From NCBI RefSeq assembly GCF_028737195.1, contig NZ_JAQZAJ010000004.1, positions 62,001 through 126,000 on the forward strand: a stretch of 64,000 bases of DNA. The letters are read 5' to 3'. A program made the position numbers and the translations under genes. Positions 32,580 through 40,219 of the stretch are shown here, piece by piece. The notes beneath the pieces were generated by a model. The model was not told the origin of the DNA, made no database searches, and saw only the letters and a program-made list of their open reading frames with translations. Source of the DNA: Pseudovibrio exalbescens. Its GTDB lineage: Bacteria; Pseudomonadota; Alphaproteobacteria; Rhizobiales; Stappiaceae. Positions within the stretch are counted from its first letter, which is position 1; each line of letters opens with the position of its first letter.

Positions 32580-34070
32580 ATGGTCTGCGAGACATTGAGC
32601 CAAGGTTTCTTGGAGGAGTTTCAAAAGGTTAGAGAAGCGGTGGCGTTGCATACCGATGATGGCGAGGTACGATATCTTGACCTATTGGAGTTGCATGGTG
32701 CCTTCTGCCATCAGGTCGAAAACCTCCCGCTGCCCTCTGGCTCCCGTGTTGCTTTGTTTGCAGAAAAAAGCGCCCGCACCCTCGCCTTGATCCTGGCGCT
32801 CTGGCACCACGGCCATCCGGTTATGATTGTGCCCGCAGGTCTTGGTGACAAAGCATGCGACAAGGTCTTTGAAGATGCAGCGATCTTCGCGCAGATCGGC
32901 CTTGATGCGCACGGAACCATCGAGATTCTGAAGGAAGTGCGTGGCAAGGGCTTTACCAAAAGCACCGACAACTGCGCTTTGATACTCACCACCTCGGGCA
33001 GCACTGGCGTACCTAAAGGTGTGATGCTTCCCGCAAACGCGTTGAAGAGCTTCTTCGCTTGGGCGAAACAACAGTTCTCCTTAGTGCAGAACAGCAAGGT
33101 CTTTAGCTACGCTCCGCTGAACTTCGATCTCGCCCTGCTTGAGATCTGGACCCCGCTCTCCATTGGGGCCTGCTCGGTCCTGGCAGATCCTGCAAAAGGT
33201 GCAGATGGGGCGTATCTGCGGGCGCTGGTTTCCAAGCATAAGCCGGACCTGATCGAAGGTGTTCCGCTGCTTTATCGAATGCTGGCGGAGACAGATGGCA
33301 GCGCGGCTTTCAAGGCTCCCTTCGTCAAGAACGTCATCATGACCGGCGAGAAGTTCTCCAAAGAACAGCGCCTACAGCTGGCCCATATGTTTCCGAAGGC
33401 GATCTTCCGCAATGTTTATGGGGCCACCGAAACCAACGACAGCCTGATCTTTTCTTGCAATGCTGAGGAGCTGACAGACCTTGAGGTGATGCCGGTTGGC
33501 ATGCCGCTCCCTCATGTGAAAGTTCTGGTGGAGCCGACGGATGAGCCAGAGGCAGACGATATCGCCCGCGGTGAACTGCTTGTTTCTACGCCGTTTCAGG
33601 CAACTGGATACACAGATCCTGTAAAAACCGAAGATGCGTTTCTGACCCGGGTTGTAGAGGGCGTTGCTCAGACGTTCTACAAGACCGGAGATCTGGTCCG
33701 CATGAAGAAAAATGGCCTGATTTACCTTGAAGGCCGTAGCGATTTTATTGTGAAAGTTCGCGGCGTCCGCACCAACATTGTCGATGTCGAGATCGCCCTT
33801 ACCTCCCATCCGGATGTGGAGGCGGCTGCCGTGATCCCTCTACCTGACGCCGCTGCAGGCACAAAGCTGGCTGCTGTGGTGCAGGTCTCCCCTGGTGCAA
33901 AGTTGAACAGCCTTACACTGCGCAGCTATTGTGCCGAGCACATTCCACGCTCAGCGATACCTTCCCTTTACAAAATTACAAGTGATCCACTCGCGAGAAC
34001 CTCAACAGGCAAGCCAGACCGCAAGTCACTTGCCGGGTTCTTCCAAGAAGCCGGAGAAACAACTTCATGA
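32580..34070 (+). CDS. Stand-alone adenylation enzyme (NRPS-type A domain)
   Basis: 496-aa AMP-forming ligase that would activate an amino acid and load it on the carrier protein encoded next. Core motifs: A3 TTSGSTGVPKG (137-147), A4 NFDLALLEIW (181-190), A5 NVYGATETND (278-287), A7 YKTGDLVRM, A8 GRSDFIVKVRGVRTNIVDVEI, A10 STGKPDRKS with Lys478. Asp183 fills the position that binds the alpha-amino group in amino-acid-activating domains. By hand alignment to GrsA the pocket residues read D-L-L-E-I-T-V-D-S-K; Glu226 and Asp287 would suit a basic side chain (tentative). Start ATG 32580; stop overlaps the carrier gene by 4 bp. First gene of the ten-gene cluster. Confidence 0.88.
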   Translation: MVCETLSQGFLEEFQKVREAVALHTDDGEVRYLDLLELHGAFCHQVENLPLPSGSRVALFAEKSARTLALILALWHHGHPVMIVPAGLGDKACDKVFEDAAIFAQIGLDAHGTIEILKEVRGKGFTKSTDNCALILTTSGSTGVPKGVMLPANALKSFFAWAKQQFSLVQNSKVFSYAPLNFDLALLEIWTPLSIGACSVLADPAKGADGAYLRALVSKHKPDLIEGVPLLYRMLAETDGSAAFKAPFVKNVIMTGEKFSKEQRLQLAHMFPKAIFRNVYGATETNDSLIFSCNAEELTDLEVMPVGMPLPHVKVLVEPTDEPEADDIARGELLVSTPFQATGYTDPVKTEDAFLTRVVEGVAQTFYKTGDLVRMKKNGLIYLEGRSDFIVKVRGVRTNIVDVEIALTSHPDVEAAAVIPLPDAAAGTKLAAVVQVSPGAKLNSLTLRSYCAEHIPRSAIPSLYKITSDPLARTSTGKPDRKSLAGFFQEAGETTS

Positions 34071-34324
34071 CTTATTCCCATGAAATTCGCAGCTTCATCT
34101 GTAGCGAACTGACCACAGATGTCTCTGCCGATGAAATCCCTGAGGACTATGACCTGTTGGCCTCGGGTGTTTTGGACAGTCTGGCATTGGTACGCCTGAT
34201 TGCATGGCTGGGAGAGACTTTCTCACTGCCGATCAACGAAATGGACCTTGCACCGGAGGATTTTTTGAGTGTGAAGGCCATAGACGACTTCATTCTGAAG
34301 CATGAACAGAAAGCAGTCGCCTAG
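34067..34324 (+). CDS. Acyl/peptidyl carrier protein
   Basis: 85-aa four-helix carrier protein. The phosphopantetheine site is Ser38 in SGVLDSLALVRLI, with the DS(L) core expected for a PCP/ACP. Acidic overall (EIPEDYDLL, EMDLAPEDF). ATG overlaps the adenylation-gene stop (ATGA), so the two are made in step. It presumably holds the activated amino acid as a thioester for the dehydrogenase, cyclase-like and transglutaminase-like enzymes downstream. A 4'-phosphopantetheinyl transferase is not in the window. Confidence 0.92.
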   Translation: MTYSHEIRSFICSELTTDVSADEIPEDYDLLASGVLDSLALVRLIAWLGETFSLPINEMDLAPEDFLSVKAIDDFILKHEQKAVA

Positions 34325-34357
34325 TTTTAACCAGATATCTATTAGGAGGATAGAGTA

Positions 34358-34735
34358 ATGTTCTACCGCAAGAAAGATGAACTTGAGGGCGTTAACTGGG
34401 GCAATGGATCTAGTCACCGTCTGATTACTAAGAAGGACAACATGGGCTTCACTGTTGCCCACACTGTTGTAAATGCTGGTTCAGAGTCTCGCTTGCAGTA
34501 TGAGCGTCATCTGGAAGCCTGCTACTGCATTTCCGGTAGTGGCAAGGTCTATAGCAAGGATCGCAGTATCGTCTTCAACATCGAGCCTGGCGACATCTAT
34601 GCGCTCGATGAACATGACCCGCATATTCTCGTCGCGAACGAAGGCGAAGACATGCACCTCGTGAGCGTCTTCAACCCGCCGTTGAACGGCGATGAACGAC
34701 ATAAGCTCGACCCAGAAGGGTTCTCCCGCTACTAA
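34358..34735 (+). CDS. Ectoine-synthase-like cupin (EctC family)
   Basis: 125-aa single-domain cupin clearly homologous to L-ectoine synthase. HLEACYCISGSG matches HLEAVYCIEGEG of EctC, YALDEHDPH matches YALDKHDKH, and VSVFNPPLNG matches VCVFNPPLTG. The iron ligands established for EctC (Glu57, Tyr85, His93 in the Paenibacillus enzyme) are conserved as Glu53, Tyr81 and His89 with identical spacing. ectA and ectB are absent. Ectoine synthase closes a cyclic amidine from N-acetyl-diaminobutyrate; here the enzyme sits between carrier protein and dehydrogenase genes, so it may cyclise a carrier-bound or released amino-acid derivative. Strong ribosome-binding site aggagg. Confidence 0.88.
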   Translation: MFYRKKDELEGVNWGNGSSHRLITKKDNMGFTVAHTVVNAGSESRLQYERHLEACYCISGSGKVYSKDRSIVFNIEPGDIYALDEHDPHILVANEGEDMHLVSVFNPPLNGDERHKLDPEGFSRY

Positions 34736-34756
34736 GCCAAAAGGAGTGCGAGCGTC

Positions 34757-35893
34757 ATGCTCTCAACTAATCCTTCTGCGCGCTTCGAAGAGCTGGTTTC
34801 AGCTCTTCGTAAGCTCGACCCCTCAATCAATGAGGGCGCGCCGTCCGAGACAGAATTTCCCCGGTCCAAGTGGCAGGCAATCTCCGATGCCGGGTTCTTC
34901 GAAGCGGCTGTAGATCAAGCCTTCTCCCTCAACGATCGTTTGAAGGGCATGCTGACCCTTTGCGAAACACTGGGAGAGGTTTCTCAGGATTCAGGCCTCA
35001 ACTTCACCGTTGCGACCCATCTGGCGAGCACAATTTCAGCGCTGGAACAGTTCGGTAGCGAGGATCTCAAGGCCCGCTATCTGGCTGATCTTTCCGCCGG
35101 GCGGTTGATCGGTGCGCACGCAATCAGTGAGCCTGGTGCCGGGTCTGATGCTGTTTCCATGCAGGCAACGGCTGCCAAGCATGGAGATGAGTACGTCCTG
35201 AATGGCCACAAGGCATTCGTAACAAACGGCCCGATCGCCGACGTGATCGTGGTTTACGCCAAGACCAGTGACAGCAAGGCAGGCGGCATTTCCGCGTTTC
35301 TTGTGCCAACAACCACTAAGGGCGTGAAGATTGGGCCAACCATGAAGAAGGTTGGTCTGATTTCTTCTCCCCTCAGCGAGCTGACGCTGGATGACTGCCG
35401 CATTCCGGCAGCCAATCTCATTGGCCGCGAAGGCGCAGGTTTCCTGATCCTGAGCTATGTCATGAAGCGTGAGATCCTCTATTCCTTCATGATGAATGTC
35501 GGCGAAATGAAGCGCCGAATTGACCGGTGTGTTCGGTATGCCAACACCCGCGAGCAATTTGGCACGTCCATCGGGGCTTTCCAGTCTGTGGCCAACAAGA
35601 TCGTAGAGATGAAAATGCGCTACGAAATGAGCCGCAACTGGATCCTGCACGTAGCGGAAAAGGTCAGCCAGAACAAAGACGTGACGACCGATGTTGCGAT
35701 TGCAAAGGTCTATGTGAGCGAAAGCGCCCTGTCCACGGCCATTGACGCGGTCCATGTGTTCGGTGGTTACGGCTTTCTGGCGGAAAACGGACTTGGCGCT
35801 GAGGTGTGCAATGCTCTGGCGGGACCGATTTACTCCGGAACAAACGACATTCAGCGCTCCCGAATTGCAGCCATGATGGGGATCAGAGCATGA
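34757..35893 (+). CDS. Acyl-CoA dehydrogenase-like flavoprotein (probable carrier-bound aminoacyl dehydrogenase)
   Basis: 378-aa FAD enzyme of the acyl-CoA dehydrogenase superfamily: AISEPGAGSDAVSMQATA (123-140), the FAD-adenine segment NTREQFGTSIGAFQSV, and the C-terminal HVFGGYGFLAENGL and PIYSGTNDIQRSRIAAMMG. The base position used in medium-chain enzymes (Glu in YEGT) is Ser; instead Glu239 in KREILY aligns by hand with the base of isovaleryl-CoA dehydrogenase. In pyrrole pathways (PltE/RedW/PigA) such enzymes oxidise prolyl groups on a carrier protein. Its position after A, PCP and EctC-like genes supports an analogous substrate. Stop overlaps the next gene. Confidence 0.88.
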   Translation: MLSTNPSARFEELVSALRKLDPSINEGAPSETEFPRSKWQAISDAGFFEAAVDQAFSLNDRLKGMLTLCETLGEVSQDSGLNFTVATHLASTISALEQFGSEDLKARYLADLSAGRLIGAHAISEPGAGSDAVSMQATAAKHGDEYVLNGHKAFVTNGPIADVIVVYAKTSDSKAGGISAFLVPTTTKGVKIGPTMKKVGLISSPLSELTLDDCRIPAANLIGREGAGFLILSYVMKREILYSFMMNVGEMKRRIDRCVRYANTREQFGTSIGAFQSVANKIVEMKMRYEMSRNWILHVAEKVSQNKDVTTDVAIAKVYVSESALSTAIDAVHVFGGYGFLAENGLGAEVCNALAGPIYSGTNDIQRSRIAAMMGIRA

Positions 35894-36615
35894 GCACGTC
35901 GCACATCCACTCCAATCAAGACCCGTCCGTTGCTCTGAACCATTTTGGTTTGGACACTGACTTTAGTTTTCTCGGTGTCGAGTGCCAGCCCGGCGAGGTT
36001 CTGGATTATCTCGACCCTGGGGTTCAGAACTACGTGAAGCATGCACTCGGTCGGAAAGATCATTCCGACCGGTCCGTGGCAGTCACGCTGTACTACAAGA
36101 TCCGCGATGGCATCTTCTACGAGGTGTTTGGAACGGACATCAGCAAAGACGGCTTGAAGGCCTCCGGCATCATCAATGCCGGGCGTGGCTTCTGTTTGCA
36201 CAAGGCCATTTTGTATGCTGCATGTTGCCGTGCCGCCAGTGTGCCGTGCCGTGTTGTGGCCTCTAAGGTTCAGAACCACATCACCACACCAAGCCTGGAA
36301 AAATTGGTCGGCGGCAAGGTGTTTCTGCATTGGTACAATGAGGTGAAAGTAGACGGTCAATGGCTGAAGACTGCACCTGTTTTCAATAGCTTGCTTTGCA
36401 AGCTCTACAAGATTGAACCGCTCGAATTCGACGGTTTCAGCGATGCGGTCCATCAGCCGCATACCAAGGGTCGGTCCATGGAATACCTTGGAGAGCCGAC
36501 ACGTTTCTCTAACCCCAAGCACTCGGAACTTGTGTGTCTGGTTCAGTCCCAGCACCCCTTGATGGTGACAGGCAAGGGATCAGTGCCGAAGGAGCGTGAG
36601 TTCCGGGCTGCCTGA
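35890..36615 (+). CDS. Transglutaminase-like cysteine enzyme
   Basis: 241-aa transglutaminase-core protein. Catalytic Cys102 in NAGRGFCLHKAILYAACCRA and His147 in FLHWYNEVKVDGQW are clear; the usual Asp after the tryptophan (W-x-x-x-D-P) is replaced in WLKTAPVFN, so the third triad residue is altered. ATG overlaps the dehydrogenase stop (ATGA). In andrimid biosynthesis a transglutaminase homologue (AdmF) forms an amide between two carrier-bound units; a similar acyl-transfer role from the carrier protein to an amine is the best inference here. Proteolysis or deamidation are alternatives. Confidence 0.82.
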   Translation: MSTSHIHSNQDPSVALNHFGLDTDFSFLGVECQPGEVLDYLDPGVQNYVKHALGRKDHSDRSVAVTLYYKIRDGIFYEVFGTDISKDGLKASGIINAGRGFCLHKAILYAACCRAASVPCRVVASKVQNHITTPSLEKLVGGKVFLHWYNEVKVDGQWLKTAPVFNSLLCKLYKIEPLEFDGFSDAVHQPHTKGRSMEYLGEPTRFSNPKHSELVCLVQSQHPLMVTGKGSVPKEREFRAA

Positions 36616-36643
36616 TCACAAATTTTTTTGAGGATATATTTGC

Positions 36644-37312
36644 ATGTACAACAAAAACACCGGTGACCCATCAAACAGCATTGTCGTCTACACCGACTAT
36701 GTGTGCCCGTATTGCCTCTTGGCTGAGACGGTCATTCGACGTGTCATCGACGGTCACGATGTGCCTATCGAATGGCGGCCTTATGAGCTGCGTCCCGATC
36801 CGGTGCCAACGCTCCGGGTCGAGGATCCATACCTGCCCACCGTATGGGAGCGCTCGGTCTACCCCATGGCTGAGGAACTCGGTGTGCCGATCAAGCTTCC
36901 GCAAATTTCTCCTCAACCACGCACGCAAAAAGCGTTCGAGGGTTTCCAGCTGGCGCAGGAAAAGGGCCTTGGCGAGGCCTACTCCAATCGGTTCTTGCGG
37001 GCCTTCTTTCAAGAAGAGCAGGACATTGGCGACATCGAAGTCATTGTTCGGCTAGGCGAAGAAGTCGGCTTGGATGGTGCGGAGCTGCGCGAAGCTCTCG
37101 ACAAGGGCACCTATGCGTTCACCCATCGCAAGGCATTGGAGCAGGCCAAGGAGCAAGCAAACATCTCGGCTGTTCCAACCATTTTCATCGGAGACAGGCG
37201 CCTGCAAGGCGTTCCGTCGGAGGGCGAACTGCGCGCCGCCCTTCAAGAAGCCGGGCTGTTGAAGGCAACTGCCCAAAACTCAACCACTCCCCTCACTCAG
37301 TCAAAAGCATAG
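36644..37312 (+). CDS. DsbA/FrnE-like thioredoxin-fold oxidoreductase
   Basis: 222-aa cytoplasmic protein (no signal peptide) of the FrnE/2-hydroxychromene-2-carboxylate isomerase branch of the DsbA family. Active site CPYC (Cys21, Cys24) after VVYTDYV; cis-Pro loop ISAVPTIFIGDRRLQGVPS. FrnE takes its name from a gene in the frenolicin polyketide cluster, and such proteins recur in secondary-metabolite clusters. The role here could be keeping a cysteine enzyme or carrier-thiol intermediate in the proper redox state, or an isomerisation step. Confidence 0.87.
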   Translation: MYNKNTGDPSNSIVVYTDYVCPYCLLAETVIRRVIDGHDVPIEWRPYELRPDPVPTLRVEDPYLPTVWERSVYPMAEELGVPIKLPQISPQPRTQKAFEGFQLAQEKGLGEAYSNRFLRAFFQEEQDIGDIEVIVRLGEEVGLDGAELREALDKGTYAFTHRKALEQAKEQANISAVPTIFIGDRRLQGVPSEGELRAALQEAGLLKATAQNSTTPLTQSKA

Positions 37313-37323
37313 AAAGGTATGTC

Positions 37324-37644
37324 ATGAGTTGGTTTTATCTTGGTGTTGCAGTGATCTTTGAAATCGCTGTTGCGATTTCAGCAGGTAATGCAAAAGGTTT
37401 CACAAATGTCAAATGGACCGCGGCAACTCTTGTAGCTGGTGCAATTGCCACGTTCTTCCTCAGCCTCGCGCTCCTCACCTTCGACGTTGGTGTAGGTTAC
37501 GCAATCTGGACTTCCGTTTCCGGGGTCGGGATCGTGATCCTGGGCGCTTTGTTCTTCAATCAGCGTCTCAATTGGCAGAAAGCCCTTGGCATCCTCCTGG
37601 TGGTTGGCGGGGTTGTCGGTCTGCGTCTGACGGGCGCGGCATAA
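37324..37644 (+). CDS. SMR family small multidrug/guanidinium exporter, subunit 1
   Basis: 106-aa four-helix inner-membrane protein. The essential SMR glutamate is Glu13 in WFYLGVAVIFEIAVA; GVGYAIWTSVSGVGIVILGALFF and the C-terminal GILLVVGGVVGLRL are conserved. Paired with the next gene, a pattern typical of heteromeric SMR transporters. Placed inside the biosynthetic cluster, it is a likely exporter of the product or of a small cationic compound. Confidence 0.92.
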   Translation: MSWFYLGVAVIFEIAVAISAGNAKGFTNVKWTAATLVAGAIATFFLSLALLTFDVGVGYAIWTSVSGVGIVILGALFFNQRLNWQKALGILLVVGGVVGLRLTGAA

Positions 37645-37695
37645 GCGGCCGCTTTCAGCCCGCAAACCTCAAGCTTCAAGAGAAGGAATTTTAAA

Positions 37696-38073
37696 ATGTC
37701 GGCAACAACAGAACGCAACGAAACAACCGAAAGTCACGGTAAGGCATGGCTGGCTCTGCTCCTCGCTGGCCTTTTTGAGATAGGGTACGCTTTGAGCGTT
37801 GGCGGAAGCCAGGCCTTCACGGTGCTGAGCTGGTCGATCTCTGCGGTCATCTTCTTCCTGCTTACGCTCTACTTCCTGAGTGTGGCCTTGAAGCAGATCG
37901 ATGTTGGTATTGGCTACGCCGTTTGGGCAGGTATCGGCGCCATCGGTGCGGCGGTCTTCGGCAGCATCCTGCTGGACCAGACCCTGACCTTTTACCAGGG
38001 TGTATGGCTTGCTGTGATCATCGGCGGCGTTGTTTGGCTCAAGCTGGCAGACAGCAAGCAGCTTAACGGCTAA
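37696..38073 (+). CDS. SMR family exporter, subunit 2
   Basis: 125-aa four-helix protein with a hydrophilic N-terminal extension of about 17 residues. Essential Glu in LLLAGLFEIGYALSVG; QIDVGIGYAVWAGIGAIGAAVFG is the TM3 signature. It lies 51 bp after subunit 1 with its own ribosome-binding site (aagga). The paired genes probably form an antiparallel heterodimer. Members of this branch export guanidinium or quaternary/aromatic cations, which would suit a cationic product. Confidence 0.92.
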   Translation: MSATTERNETTESHGKAWLALLLAGLFEIGYALSVGGSQAFTVLSWSISAVIFFLLTLYFLSVALKQIDVGIGYAVWAGIGAIGAAVFGSILLDQTLTFYQGVWLAVIIGGVVWLKLADSKQLNG

Positions 38074-38263
38074 GTCAACCGGGATCGAAGGCTGGCGTCG
38101 TTTCGGTGCTTGATGCCGTCCTTGGGCACTGGTCCTCGCGGTTAACGCATGAACAGGTTCTTAGTGAGCTTCAGTCATGTGTTCGCCGCGGGGGTGAATG
38201 CCCGGTGCCAGCCTTGTCTCCCCTCCCACCAATTCCGAAAGACTATCAGGGAGCGCAGTACTC

Positions 38264-38755
38264 ATGCCCTCAAAAACAGAACACGACGTCATTCACAGTC
38301 TGGTTCAGCAGGCGGTGGACATGTCTATCGAGCATGTCGAAAAGGGTGGCATTCCGTTCACAGCGCTGATTGCCGACCAAAACGGCAAGGTCTATGGCAG
38401 CGGCGTCAACCGTGTCTCCGAAGACCATGACCCGACCGCTCATGCAGAGGTTGTGGCCATCCGAAACGCGTGCAAGCACCGTCAGCACCCCAGTCTGAGC
38501 GGTTTGACCTTGATCGCCTCCGGTGAGCCATGTGCCCTGTGTTACATGGCTGCGCTCTATTCCGGTGTCTCACGCATTGTCTATGCGGTGGACAGAGACG
38601 GCGCTGCACAAGGTGGTTTCAACTACTCGCGCTCCTACGAGATTTTCGCTGTGCCAACAGAGCATTGGGCCATGCGCCCGCAACTTCACGAAGTGGAAAA
38701 TGGTTTTGAACCCTTCCGAATGTGGCTGGCCAAATCCAGCTTCATGCGGTTTTAA
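38264..38755 (+). CDS. Cytidine/guanine deaminase-like zinc hydrolase
   Basis: 163-aa cytidine-deaminase-fold enzyme. Zinc site: His60-Ala-Glu62 in PTAHAEVVAIR and Cys90/Cys93 in GEPCALCYMAALY. The start at 38264 follows agggag; the frame is open further upstream without good start signals. The family includes guanine, cytosine and tRNA-adenosine deaminases; the ~160-aa length and C-terminal FEPFRMWLAK resemble the small guanine-deaminase group. Within the cluster it could deaminate an amidine or guanidine-like ring, or a nucleobase. It follows the SMR pair by 190 bp. Confidence 0.85.
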   Translation: MPSKTEHDVIHSLVQQAVDMSIEHVEKGGIPFTALIADQNGKVYGSGVNRVSEDHDPTAHAEVVAIRNACKHRQHPSLSGLTLIASGEPCALCYMAALYSGVSRIVYAVDRDGAAQGGFNYSRSYEIFAVPTEHWAMRPQLHEVENGFEPFRMWLAKSSFMRF

Positions 38756-38770
38756 TGGAGGTCTGCACTG

Positions 38771-39556
38771 ATGGACGCTGTACTTGAAAAGCAATGGAAG
38801 GCTGATGGATGGAGCGCCCCTGCCCGCATTGGCGTGATTGTACCTCACGCGGATGTGGGGCCTGAAGCCGAGTTCGGCGCAATGGCGGGCGGCGAGGTGT
38901 CTATTCACGGCGGGCGCGTGCACTTTTCCGCCATGCGCGCCGGTGGTGTCATGGACGAGAAGATTGCTCACCAGCCGGTTGAAGCTTTCACTGCGCCGCC
39001 GCATCTGGATGAGGCGGTTGCGTCCCTCGCCACCTCTCCTCTGGACGCCATCGGCCTTGCCTTTACTAGTTCTGCCTACAAACACGGGCCGGACGGCGAG
39101 GCCGCGTTGCTTGAGCGCTTGAAGCCGGTTCTGCGCGGCATCCCCACTACAACAACCTGCAGTGCTGCGGCCAAGGCCTTTCAGAAGCTTGGGACCAAAC
39201 GGTTGGCTTTGATCAATCCACCCTGGTTTGATGATGCTCTGTCCCAAGAGGGGGCGGATTATTTTGAGAAGGCTGGCGTTCCTGTTGCTTACCATGGGCC
39301 TTGTGGTTTGCCGAGCGGACAGCCGCATATCACCCCTGCCGGGCTTTATGATTGGGTTGCCAAAGTGGTCGCAGAAAACGATGTCGATACCGTATTCGTT
39401 GCTGGCAATGGCCAGCGCGCTGTGGGGATTATCGATGCCGTCGAAAAGAACCTCAATGTCACCATGACTTCTGCAAACCAGGTGCTGTTCTGGGATACGC
39501 TCTCCGCGCTTTCAGAAAAGCCAGCGGTGACGGGATACGGACGCCTGTTCGGGTGA
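38771..39556 (+). CDS. Asp/Glu racemase superfamily protein (maleate isomerase/arylmalonate decarboxylase-like)
   Basis: 261-aa cytoplasmic protein resembling the maleate cis-trans isomerase/arylmalonate decarboxylase group: RIGVIVPHADVGPEAEF, AIGLAFTSSAYKHG, TTTTCSAAAKAFQKLG with Cys130, VDTVFVAGNGQRAVGIIDAVE, VTMTSANQVLFWDTL. The cysteine often found in the CTSxS loop is absent (FTSSA) and no Cys is seen in the C-terminal TSANQ segment, so the two-cysteine racemase chemistry is not complete. A decarboxylase-like or altered reaction is possible. Last gene of the co-directional cluster, 15 bp after the deaminase gene, good ribosome-binding site ggagg. Confidence 0.8.
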   Translation: MDAVLEKQWKADGWSAPARIGVIVPHADVGPEAEFGAMAGGEVSIHGGRVHFSAMRAGGVMDEKIAHQPVEAFTAPPHLDEAVASLATSPLDAIGLAFTSSAYKHGPDGEAALLERLKPVLRGIPTTTTCSAAAKAFQKLGTKRLALINPPWFDDALSQEGADYFEKAGVPVAYHGPCGLPSGQPHITPAGLYDWVAKVVAENDVDTVFVAGNGQRAVGIIDAVEKNLNVTMTSANQVLFWDTLSALSEKPAVTGYGRLFG

Positions 39557-39775: not shown

Positions 39776-40219
39776 ATGTCCCTCCAGAGTGCCGCATGGG
39801 AGCGGTTGATTTACCTGGTTGATTTTGTCGAAAGCTTTGTCGCCAAGGATATGCAGCGCAAACACAACATCGGACTCTCGGAGTTTCGTGCCCTTAAGTT
39901 CTTGGAGGTCGCCAAGGATTCTGAACTGCGTATGCAAGAATTGGCTGGCCTTCTGGGATTGAACCAGAGTTCCGTCACCCGTCTGGTCGGGCGGCTTGAG
40001 AACAATGGCTATACGGTGAGAGACCTGTGCCCTGACGACAAGCGCGGCATCTATACTGTTCTCACGAACCGGGGGCGCAAGCGTCTTTCAGAGGCCAGGG
40101 TTGACTACGAAAAAGCGCTCTGTGCGGCTCTTGAAGAAGCCAAGGACAAGTTTAGTGCAGGGGACGTGCTTACTTTGCTGAATGCGCTCTCCGCCAAAGA
40201 AGAAGTTGAGGCCAGCTGA
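39776..40219 (+). CDS. MarR family transcriptional regulator
   Basis: 147-aa winged-helix regulator: ELRMQELAGLLGLNQSSVTRLVGRLENNGYTVRDLCPDDKRG (HTH plus wing with the conserved D-x-R region). Ligand-responsive repressors of this family often control neighbouring export or detoxification genes. It lies 219 bp after the last gene of the carrier-protein cluster with its own promoter region, and both promoters share TGCAyrTGCA, so it is a candidate cluster regulator. Confidence 0.9.
   Translation: MSLQSAAWERLIYLVDFVESFVAKDMQRKHNIGLSEFRALKFLEVAKDSELRMQELAGLLGLNQSSVTRLVGRLENNGYTVRDLCPDDKRGIYTVLTNRGRKRLSEARVDYEKALCAALEEAKDKFSAGDVLTLLNALSAKEEVEAS

What the first reader, a model, noticed from the sequence alone, without database searches (positions are those of the whole stretch)
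32580..39556. Undescribed carrier-protein-tethered amino-acid pathway with EctC-like, dehydrogenase, transglutaminase-like and SMR genes
Ten plus-strand genes, several overlapping by ATGA: adenylation enzyme, carrier protein, EctC-like cupin, acyl-CoA-dehydrogenase homologue, transglutaminase homologue, FrnE/DsbA protein, two SMR exporters, deaminase-like and maleate-isomerase-like enzymes. A + PCP + dehydrogenase is the known logic of pyrrole-carboxylate formation (PltF/PltL/PltE), and AdmF shows a transglutaminase homologue can make amides from carrier thioesters, but adding an ectoine-synthase-like cyclase and paired SMR exporters makes a set I do not recognise. Proposal: a basic amino acid is loaded, oxidised, cyclised to a cyclic amidine or similar cation, released or coupled by the transglutaminase homologue and exported by the SMR pair.
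Basis: partly seen in the sequence, partly recalled or inferred. Interest (0 to 1): 0.85.

Follow-up and report, generated by a model that had tools for sequence, protein, structure and literature searches.

The report
Sugar-free cousin of showdomycin gene cluster
Eleven neighbouring genes in a marine Pseudovibrio bacterium form a gene cluster shared with distant bacteria; it probably uses the showdomycin antibiotic's route from glutamine to an aminopyrrole ring, but finishes with different enzymes and pumps to make a small, still unknown compound.

Summary
The ten genes are real, and an eleventh (MarR, 39776-40219) belongs with them. The set is not a chance neighbourhood: of 42 loci with the window's Amdase-type gene, 39 carry the whole set, in Pseudovibrio, Vibrio, Grimontia, Alteromonas, Leisingera, Streptomyces, Kribbella, Nocardia, Actinokineospora and others.

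The five-gene core (adenylation enzyme, carrier protein, EctC-like cupin, prolyl-carrier-dehydrogenase-like ACAD, transglutaminase-like protein) matches what a review describes for showdomycin: glutamine is cyclised to 2-amino-1-pyrroline-5-carboxylate, loaded, oxidised and hydrolysed to an aminopyrrole acid. So the core is known, and cyclisation most likely comes first.

New here: the same core, with a nearly uniform adenylation code, stands beside at least five different sets of tailoring genes. The window's set (type I) has no C-glycosidase. It has an arylmalonate-decarboxylase-fold protein lacking that family's catalytic cysteine, a guanine-deaminase-like enzyme, a FrnE-like DsbA protein and an SMR pair. 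I propose decarboxylation of the aminopyrrole acid to a small cation, oxidised to an imino-maleimide/maleimide-type electrophile, with pump, deaminase and thiol-redox protection. The product is inferred. The listings of ten open-access searches showed no description of type I.

The parts
32580..34070 (+). A: stand-alone adenylation enzyme; code D-L-L-L-I-T-V-D-S-K, proline-like start plus Asp at position 330; proposed substrate 2-amino-1-pyrroline-5-carboxylate
   Evidence: Pfam AMP-binding; positions 235, 236, 239, 301, 330, 331, 517 conserved in 80-83 of 83 proteins (position numbers recalled and mapped by motif)
34067..34324 (+). PCP: carrier protein, phosphopantetheine Ser38
   Evidence: Pfam PP-binding; Ser38 in 81 of 81
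34358..34735 (+). EctC-like cupin; proposed glutamine cyclase
   Evidence: Ectoine_synth 120.7 bits; metal ligands E53, Y81, H89 in 83 of 83; the ectoine carboxylate contact Asn38 is Asn in 0 of 83
34757..35893 (+). ACAD: acyl-carrier dehydrogenase near the prolyl-PCP dehydrogenases
   Evidence: PigA 335 bits and RedW 310 bits, both under their cut-offs; proposed base Glu239 in 86 of 86
35890..36615 (+). TG: transglutaminase-like protein, proposed thioester hydrolase
   Evidence: Transglut_core; Cys102 and His147 in 86 of 86; in frame with ACAD as one 619-aa ORF in Vibrio L032
36644..37312 (+). Dsb: FrnE-like DsbA protein, CPYC; no signal peptide seen by eye
   Evidence: DSBA; best solved-structure match by sequence is FrnE; both Cys in 41 of 41
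37324..37644 (+). SMR1 exporter subunit
   Evidence: Multi_Drug_Res; Glu13 in 47 of 47
37696..38073 (+). SMR2 exporter subunit
   Evidence: Multi_Drug_Res; Glu28 in 47 of 47
38264..38755 (+). Deam: guanine-deaminase-like zinc deaminase (ORF opens at 38198)
   Evidence: best solved-structure match by sequence is guanine deaminase; HAE and PCxxC residues in 46-47 of 47
38771..39556 (+). AMD: arylmalonate-decarboxylase/maleate-isomerase-fold protein without the catalytic Cys188; proposed decarboxylase
39776..40219 (+).
   Evidence: homologue in 41 of 42 loci; MarR-type NCBIfam hits, all under cut-off

Best explanation
The window holds a biosynthetic cluster built on the showdomycin front end. Step 1: the EctC-like cupin cyclises L-glutamine to 2-amino-1-pyrroline-5-carboxylate. 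Step 2: the A enzyme, whose pocket code is proline-like with an extra Asp for the amidinium, loads it on the PCP. Step 3: the ACAD removes two hydrogens next to the thioester, giving 2-aminopyrrole-5-carboxyl-PCP. Step 4: the transglutaminase-like protein hydrolyses it to the free aminopyrrole acid. Steps 1-4 are inferred from homology to a published pathway and from residue conservation; none was shown here. Step 5 (inferred by comparison): the sugar step of showdomycin is absent; AMD, a relative of arylmalonate decarboxylase without its catalytic cysteine, removes the carboxylate. Step 6 (speculative): the aminopyrrole is oxidised, perhaps by air, to an imino-maleimide, which Deam can turn into maleimide. 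The SMR pair exports the small cation; Dsb and MarR serve redox protection and control. Rough odds: core chemistry 0.85, no sugar 0.85, AMD as decarboxylase 0.45 (lowered from 0.5 on re-check, as one UbiD locus is a 3.1 kb contig), maleimide-type end product 0.35.
For: Core identity: a review gives cyclase on L-Gln, adenylation of 2-amino-1-pyrroline-5-carboxylate, PCP loading, oxidation, hydrolysis, then C-glycosylation (PMC8724604 passages). The core stands beside PsuG-like C-glycosidase and HAD phosphatase genes in 18 of 80 loci. The Halomonas elongata ectoine synthase can make this amidine from glutamine (PMC6344544 passage). Near-uniform adenylation code over all types: D235 83/83, T301 83/83, D330 81/83. 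Types swap on the core tree: 14 label changes; a type II clade lies inside type I with support 0.92-1.0, as expected if the core product is shared. Conserved set: Dsb 39, SMR1 40, SMR2 40, Deam 39, MarR 41 of 42; the misses are in L079, L094, L104, which are near contig ends. Decarboxylase: Amdase-type genes are in 65 of 80 loci; the 4 loci with UbiD have none, and UbiD with UbiX lies beside an SMR pair in L074 and L087. AMD is on the core strand in 42 of 42, while SMR1, SMR2, Deam and Dsb are all on the strand opposite to A in 24 of 39. No EctA match and no EctB over cut-off in the genome, so ectoine is unlikely.
Against: No product, enzyme assay or metabolite was seen. D330 is Asn in L044 and in L038, the window's nearest relative. 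AMDase uses Cys188 (role recalled), which AMD lacks; 5 of 6 AMD relatives from other alphaproteobacteria also lack it and show no other cluster gene in the about 3.7 kb seen, so its reaction could be another. The review calls late decarboxylation and deamination in showdomycin nonenzymatic. The UbiD/AMD exclusion rests on 4 related loci, one (L110) a 3.1 kb contig, so it is weak. SMR pumps favour cations, whereas maleimide is neutral. The primary showdomycin papers were not held, and the S. showdoensis sequence was not compared. The TG has Thr, Ala or Ser at the usual Asp position, so hydrolysis is not certain. One swap on the tree (L101 with L048) has support of only 0.675.
Confidence: 0.6

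Rival explanations
1. The transglutaminase-like protein joins the carrier-bound ring to an amine (AdmF-like), so the product is an amide of the aminopyrrole or of the pyrroline amidine, which the SMR pair exports.
For: Cys102/His147 conserved in 86 of 86; the usual Asp position is Thr/Ala/Ser; amidine-headed amides such as noformicin and anthelvencin exist (recalled).
Against: A homologous TG sits in all 16 C-glycosidase loci, where the review has hydrolysis to a free acid; none of the eleven conserved genes looks like an amine-making enzyme.
Confidence: 0.12
2. Deam and AMD are both ordinary biosynthetic steps and the end product is a neutral lactam or imide (3-pyrrolin-2-one or maleimide); the pumps only remove side products.
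For: Three of 16 type II loci also carry Deam, and showdomycin itself ends as an imide.
Against: Deam lies with the SMR pair and Dsb on the strand opposite to A in 24 of 39 loci, which looks like a protection unit.
Confidence: 0.25
3. The strain makes a showdomycin-like C-nucleoside using a PsuG gene elsewhere in the genome.
For: One PsuG-family gene exists on another contig, 416 bits.
Against: It lies beside a PfkB-type kinase ORF, as in pseudouridine breakdown (my reading of the translation, no family search run); PsuG is within the held flanks in 0 of 40 plain type I loci, though 2 mixed loci have both sets.
Confidence: 0.05
4. The EctC-like gene is a stray ectoine synthase and the neighbours are unrelated.
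For: It passes the NCBIfam ectoine synthase cut-off, 141.9 against 128 bits.
Against: No EctA match, no EctB over cut-off; Asn38 position changed in 83 of 83; conserved order across phyla.
Confidence: 0.02

Closest known systems
Showdomycin cluster (sdm), Streptomyces showdoensis
   Same: Front end as described in a review: cyclase on glutamine, adenylation, carrier protein, oxidation, hydrolysis; an Amdase-type gene is also in the 16 plain type II loci that resemble it
   Different: Window has no C-glycosidase or HAD phosphatase in the cluster; it has an SMR pair, Dsb, its own Amdase subfamily, Deam and MarR
Pyrrole-2-carboxylate module (PltF/PltL/PltE, RedM/RedO/RedW, PigI/PigG/PigA)
   Same: Stand-alone A, PCP and a related ACAD; code starts D-L-L (PltF code recalled)
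   Different: Extra cyclase, Asp at code position 330, ACAD scores under the PigA and RedW cut-offs, transglutaminase-like protein
Ectoine synthase EctC
   Same: Family match, metal ligands, and Trp, Arg, Thr and Tyr of the pocket
   Different: Carboxylate contact Asn38 lost; no EctA match and no EctB over cut-off in the genome
Arylmalonate decarboxylase / maleate cis-trans isomerase
   Different: Cys188 position is Gly, Gly74 position is Phe, Tyr126 position is Trp
Anthelvencin/ADPC-type amidine pathways (recalled)
   Same: An EctC-like enzyme making the same cyclic amidine from glutamine
   Different: There the amidine is kept and built into an amide; here it is probably aromatised

Membership tests
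Showdomycin-type C-nucleoside cluster | A, PCP, glutamine cyclase, dehydrogenase, hydrolase core | tested here: met
   Same five-gene core as the 16 type II loci and a shared code; by homology only, and not compared with S. showdoensis itself
Showdomycin-type C-nucleoside cluster | PsuG/YeiN-like C-glycosynthase in the cluster | tested here: not met
   No hit in the window; 0 of 40 plain type I loci
Showdomycin-type C-nucleoside cluster | HAD phosphatase in the cluster | tested here: not met
   No hit in the window; 0 of 40 plain type I loci
Ectoine synthase (ectoine pathway) | Metal ligands Glu57, Tyr84, His92 | tested here: met
   83 of 83
Ectoine synthase (ectoine pathway) | Asn38 carboxylate contact | tested here: not met
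   Position is Cys, Ala or Thr in 83 of 83
Ectoine synthase (ectoine pathway) | EctA and EctB partners in the genome | tested here: not met
   EctA 0 matches; EctB 3 matches, none over cut-off. None of the 14 control genomes was over either cut-off, so no positive control
Prolyl-PCP dehydrogenase (PigA/RedW/PltE) | Score over the family's curated cut-off | tested here: not met
   335 of 500 and 310 of 650 bits
Arylmalonate decarboxylase | Catalytic Cys188 | tested here: not met
   Gly in 45 of 45 type I proteins
Arylmalonate decarboxylase | Fold and oxyanion-hole Thr75/Ser76 (residue roles recalled) | tested here: met
AdmF-type transglutaminase amide synthase | Amide formation from a carrier thioester | not testable with these tools
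   Needs an enzyme assay
SMR heteromeric exporter | Two adjacent SMR genes each with the membrane Glu | tested here: met
   Glu in 47 of 47 of each; pairing as a heteromer not testable

The most novel reading that the evidence does not exclude
Glutamine-derived 2-aminopyrrole carboxylate is a shared hub: one carrier-bound module has been wired to at least five outlets (decarboxylation and export; C-ribosylation; a TrpD/TrpF/TrpC/TrpA-like annulation; TrpB-like coupling; UbiD plus flavin monooxygenase). The window's outlet makes a free imino-maleimide or maleimide electrophile through a cysteine-free Amdase-fold decarboxylase, a step that a review calls nonenzymatic in showdomycin.
Probability: 0.3. 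Interest if true: 0.8.

Novelty: new variant of a known kind. Interest (0 to 1): 0.62.

Why it matters
The core explains what the unfamiliar gene set starts with, and the comparison turns a puzzle into a testable family: same ring, different finishing genes. It predicts a substrate for each enzyme, gives a candidate enzyme for the decarboxylation that a review treats as nonenzymatic in showdomycin, and points to clusters in two phyla whose EctC-like gene is labelled 'ectoine synthase' in several records and that may make thiol-reactive or amidine compounds.

Tried and rejected
Rejected: a new core (the showdomycin front end fits better); ectoine pathway (no EctA match, no EctB over cut-off); a basic amino acid as starter (code and review favour the glutamine-derived amidine); a showdomycin-like nucleoside in this strain (only a housekeeping-like PsuG elsewhere).

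Led nowhere or limited: the transglutaminase profile found no solved relative (0 sequences at E 0.01 or better); its structure was never modelled because the machine was busy. The Cys in the MarR wing (RDLCPDDKRG-like) was seen in most of the 45 proteins, but I could not say whether it senses electrophiles. Primary showdomycin papers are not held. The 80 loci are the best 80 of 200 confirmed relatives of the window's TG, so type counts lean towards type I. Type I is defined here by AMD over 200 bits, so 42 of 42 for AMD is by construction. Gene presence was judged by tblastn bit-score limits that I chose within the held flanks (at most 10 kb each side), so an absence may be a gene further out. 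One of 85 rows (L110) was dropped from the tree for gaps; in that tree's printed labels L086 and L100 read III and are really I+II, corrected. Paper listings were capped: 5 of 12,434, 20 of 25, 5 of 7, 4 of 5, 2 of 3, 12 of 31.
Full report
What is there. The window lies on contig C21 of a 4.39 Mb genome whose nearest named relative in the GTDB scan is Pseudovibrio exalbescens DSM 16456 (L038: same TG protein, the other ten proteins 85-98% alike). An eleventh, a MarR regulator at 39776-40219, belongs with them.

Conserved unit. A profile of the transglutaminase-like protein found 200 confirmed relatives in GTDB genomes; the best 80 were kept with flanks. By tblastn limits of my choosing, the five-gene core A-PCP-EctC-ACAD-TG is complete in 74 of 80. 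Forty-two of 80 carry the window's Amdase-type gene (AMD over 200 bits): 40 plain type I and 2 (L086, L100) that also hold C-glycosidase genes. Of these 42, Dsb is in 39, SMR1 and SMR2 in 40, Deam in 39 and MarR in 41; the misses are in L079, L094 and L104, which lie near contig ends. ORFs beside the unit in the window (22001-52000) are shared with at most 4 loci other than L038, so its borders are about 32580 and 40219. Loci from Vibrio coralliilyticus, Grimontia and Alteromonas have the window's ten-gene order, with MarR at the other end. In a Vibrio plasmid record, ACAD and TG are one 619-aa reading frame. In the window's own family, 2 of 87 genomes have the EctC-like protein at 98-100% with the core beside it; one more (G062, L006) shows an EctC-like and a TG-like gene together in the 3.3 kb seen. 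In 385 genomes of the class, 2 have AMD at E below 1e-50, the window's own and G393, whose 3.75 kb locus shows no other cluster gene. The spread is patchy, which suggests horizontal transfer.

What the core does. A review (PMC8724604, passages) states for showdomycin: SdmE is proposed to cyclise L-glutamine to 2-amino-1-pyrroline-5-carboxylate, SdmC activates it, SdmD carries it, oxidation and hydrolysis follow, then SdmA and SdmB add the ribose and remove the phosphate, and the last steps are called nonenzymatic. Loci with this core plus PsuG-family and HAD genes are in our set: 16 plain type II plus the 2 mixed (families named by Pfam for L030). The EctC-like proteins keep the metal ligands and the Trp, Arg, Thr and Tyr of the ectoine synthase pocket in 83 of 83, but the place of Asn38, which contacts the carboxylate, is Cys, Ala or Thr in all 83. 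The Halomonas elongata ectoine synthase can turn glutamine into the same amidine in a side reaction (PMC6344544 passage). The adenylation code is mostly D-L-L-(M/L)-(V/I/L)-T-(V/I/L)-D-S-K over 83 proteins of all types; the Asp is Asn in 2, one of them L038. Its start matches the proline code of PltF (recalled), with an Asp where that code has Val; an Asp could hold the amidinium. ACAD keeps Glu239 in 86 of 86 and scores best to prodigiosin and prolyl-carrier dehydrogenase models, under their cut-offs. One two-electron oxidation is enough to make the aminopyrrole from the amidine (my chemistry).

One core, several outlets. Besides types I and II, 8 loci carry tryptophan-pathway-like genes (TrpA 8, TrpF 6, TrpC 3, TrpD-like 3; families from L037). 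Seven carry an Amdase-type gene with a TrpB-like PLP enzyme (type IV). Three carry an SMR pair with a styrene-monooxygenase-like flavoprotein; two of those three also have UbiD and UbiX, while the contig of the third, L088, ends early (type V). Four others carry the TrpB-like gene without an Amdase-type gene over my limits. On a tree of EctC+ACAD+TG (84 of 85 rows) the type label changes 14 times, against a mean of 38.1 and a minimum of 33 in 500 shuffles: types are inherited yet exchanged. A type II clade sits inside type I with support 0.92-1.0, and L065 (II) pairs with L051 (I) at 0.99; L101 with L048 has only 0.675. That is what a shared core product predicts.

Proposal. Aminopyrrole acid is decarboxylated to a small cation, which may oxidise to an imino-maleimide; Deam could turn this into maleimide or disarm it; the SMR pair exports it; Dsb keeps thiols in order. 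Showdomycin itself is a maleimide. The end product here is my inference.

Literature check. Ten searches of open-access papers (one search failed) showed no description of the type I set in their capped listings; subscription papers are mostly not held, so this is weak evidence of absence. Papers seen: PMC8724604 and PMC6344544 as passages; the rest as search listings only.

Noticed in passing
L037:8326-15664; also L106, L114, L052, L036: Core genes beside TrpD-like, TrpA, TrpF and TrpC homologues (EctC not over limit in L052, no TG hit in L036): possibly a tryptophan-like ring closure on aminopyrrole instead of anthranilate, giving a pyrrolo-pyrrole.
   Followed up: partly
L077:10652-13732; also L099, L102, L109, L115, L098, L058: The core followed by a TrpB-like PLP enzyme (over its cut-off in L077) and an Amdase-type gene, with an EamA exporter in six of the seven: possibly an aminopyrrole amino acid.
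   Followed up: partly
L074:10711-14790; also L087, L088: The core followed by an SMR pair, a styrene-monooxygenase-like flavoprotein, and (L074, L087) UbiD and UbiX.
   Followed up: partly
window 35890-36615 against L038:10001-10726: TG DNA is 99.4% identical to P. exalbescens while the other ten cluster genes are 78-93%: looks like a recombined tract.
   Followed up: partly
L100 and L086: Brevibacterium iodinum and Streptomyces triticisoli loci hold both the window-type genes and the C-glycosidase set beside one core.
   Followed up: no
L033:10001-19103: Rhizobium etli plasmid pB: an EctC-like gene beside genes annotated saccharopine dehydrogenase, D-alanine-D-alanine ligase and diaminopimelate epimerase; similar EctC-like genes are on many plasmids of legume isolates. 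A different, unexplained neighbourhood.
   Followed up: no
L034:7321-12184: Agrobacterium vitis plasmid: EctC-like gene beside genes annotated adenylate-forming enzyme, methyltransferase, MFS transporter and RidA.
   Followed up: no
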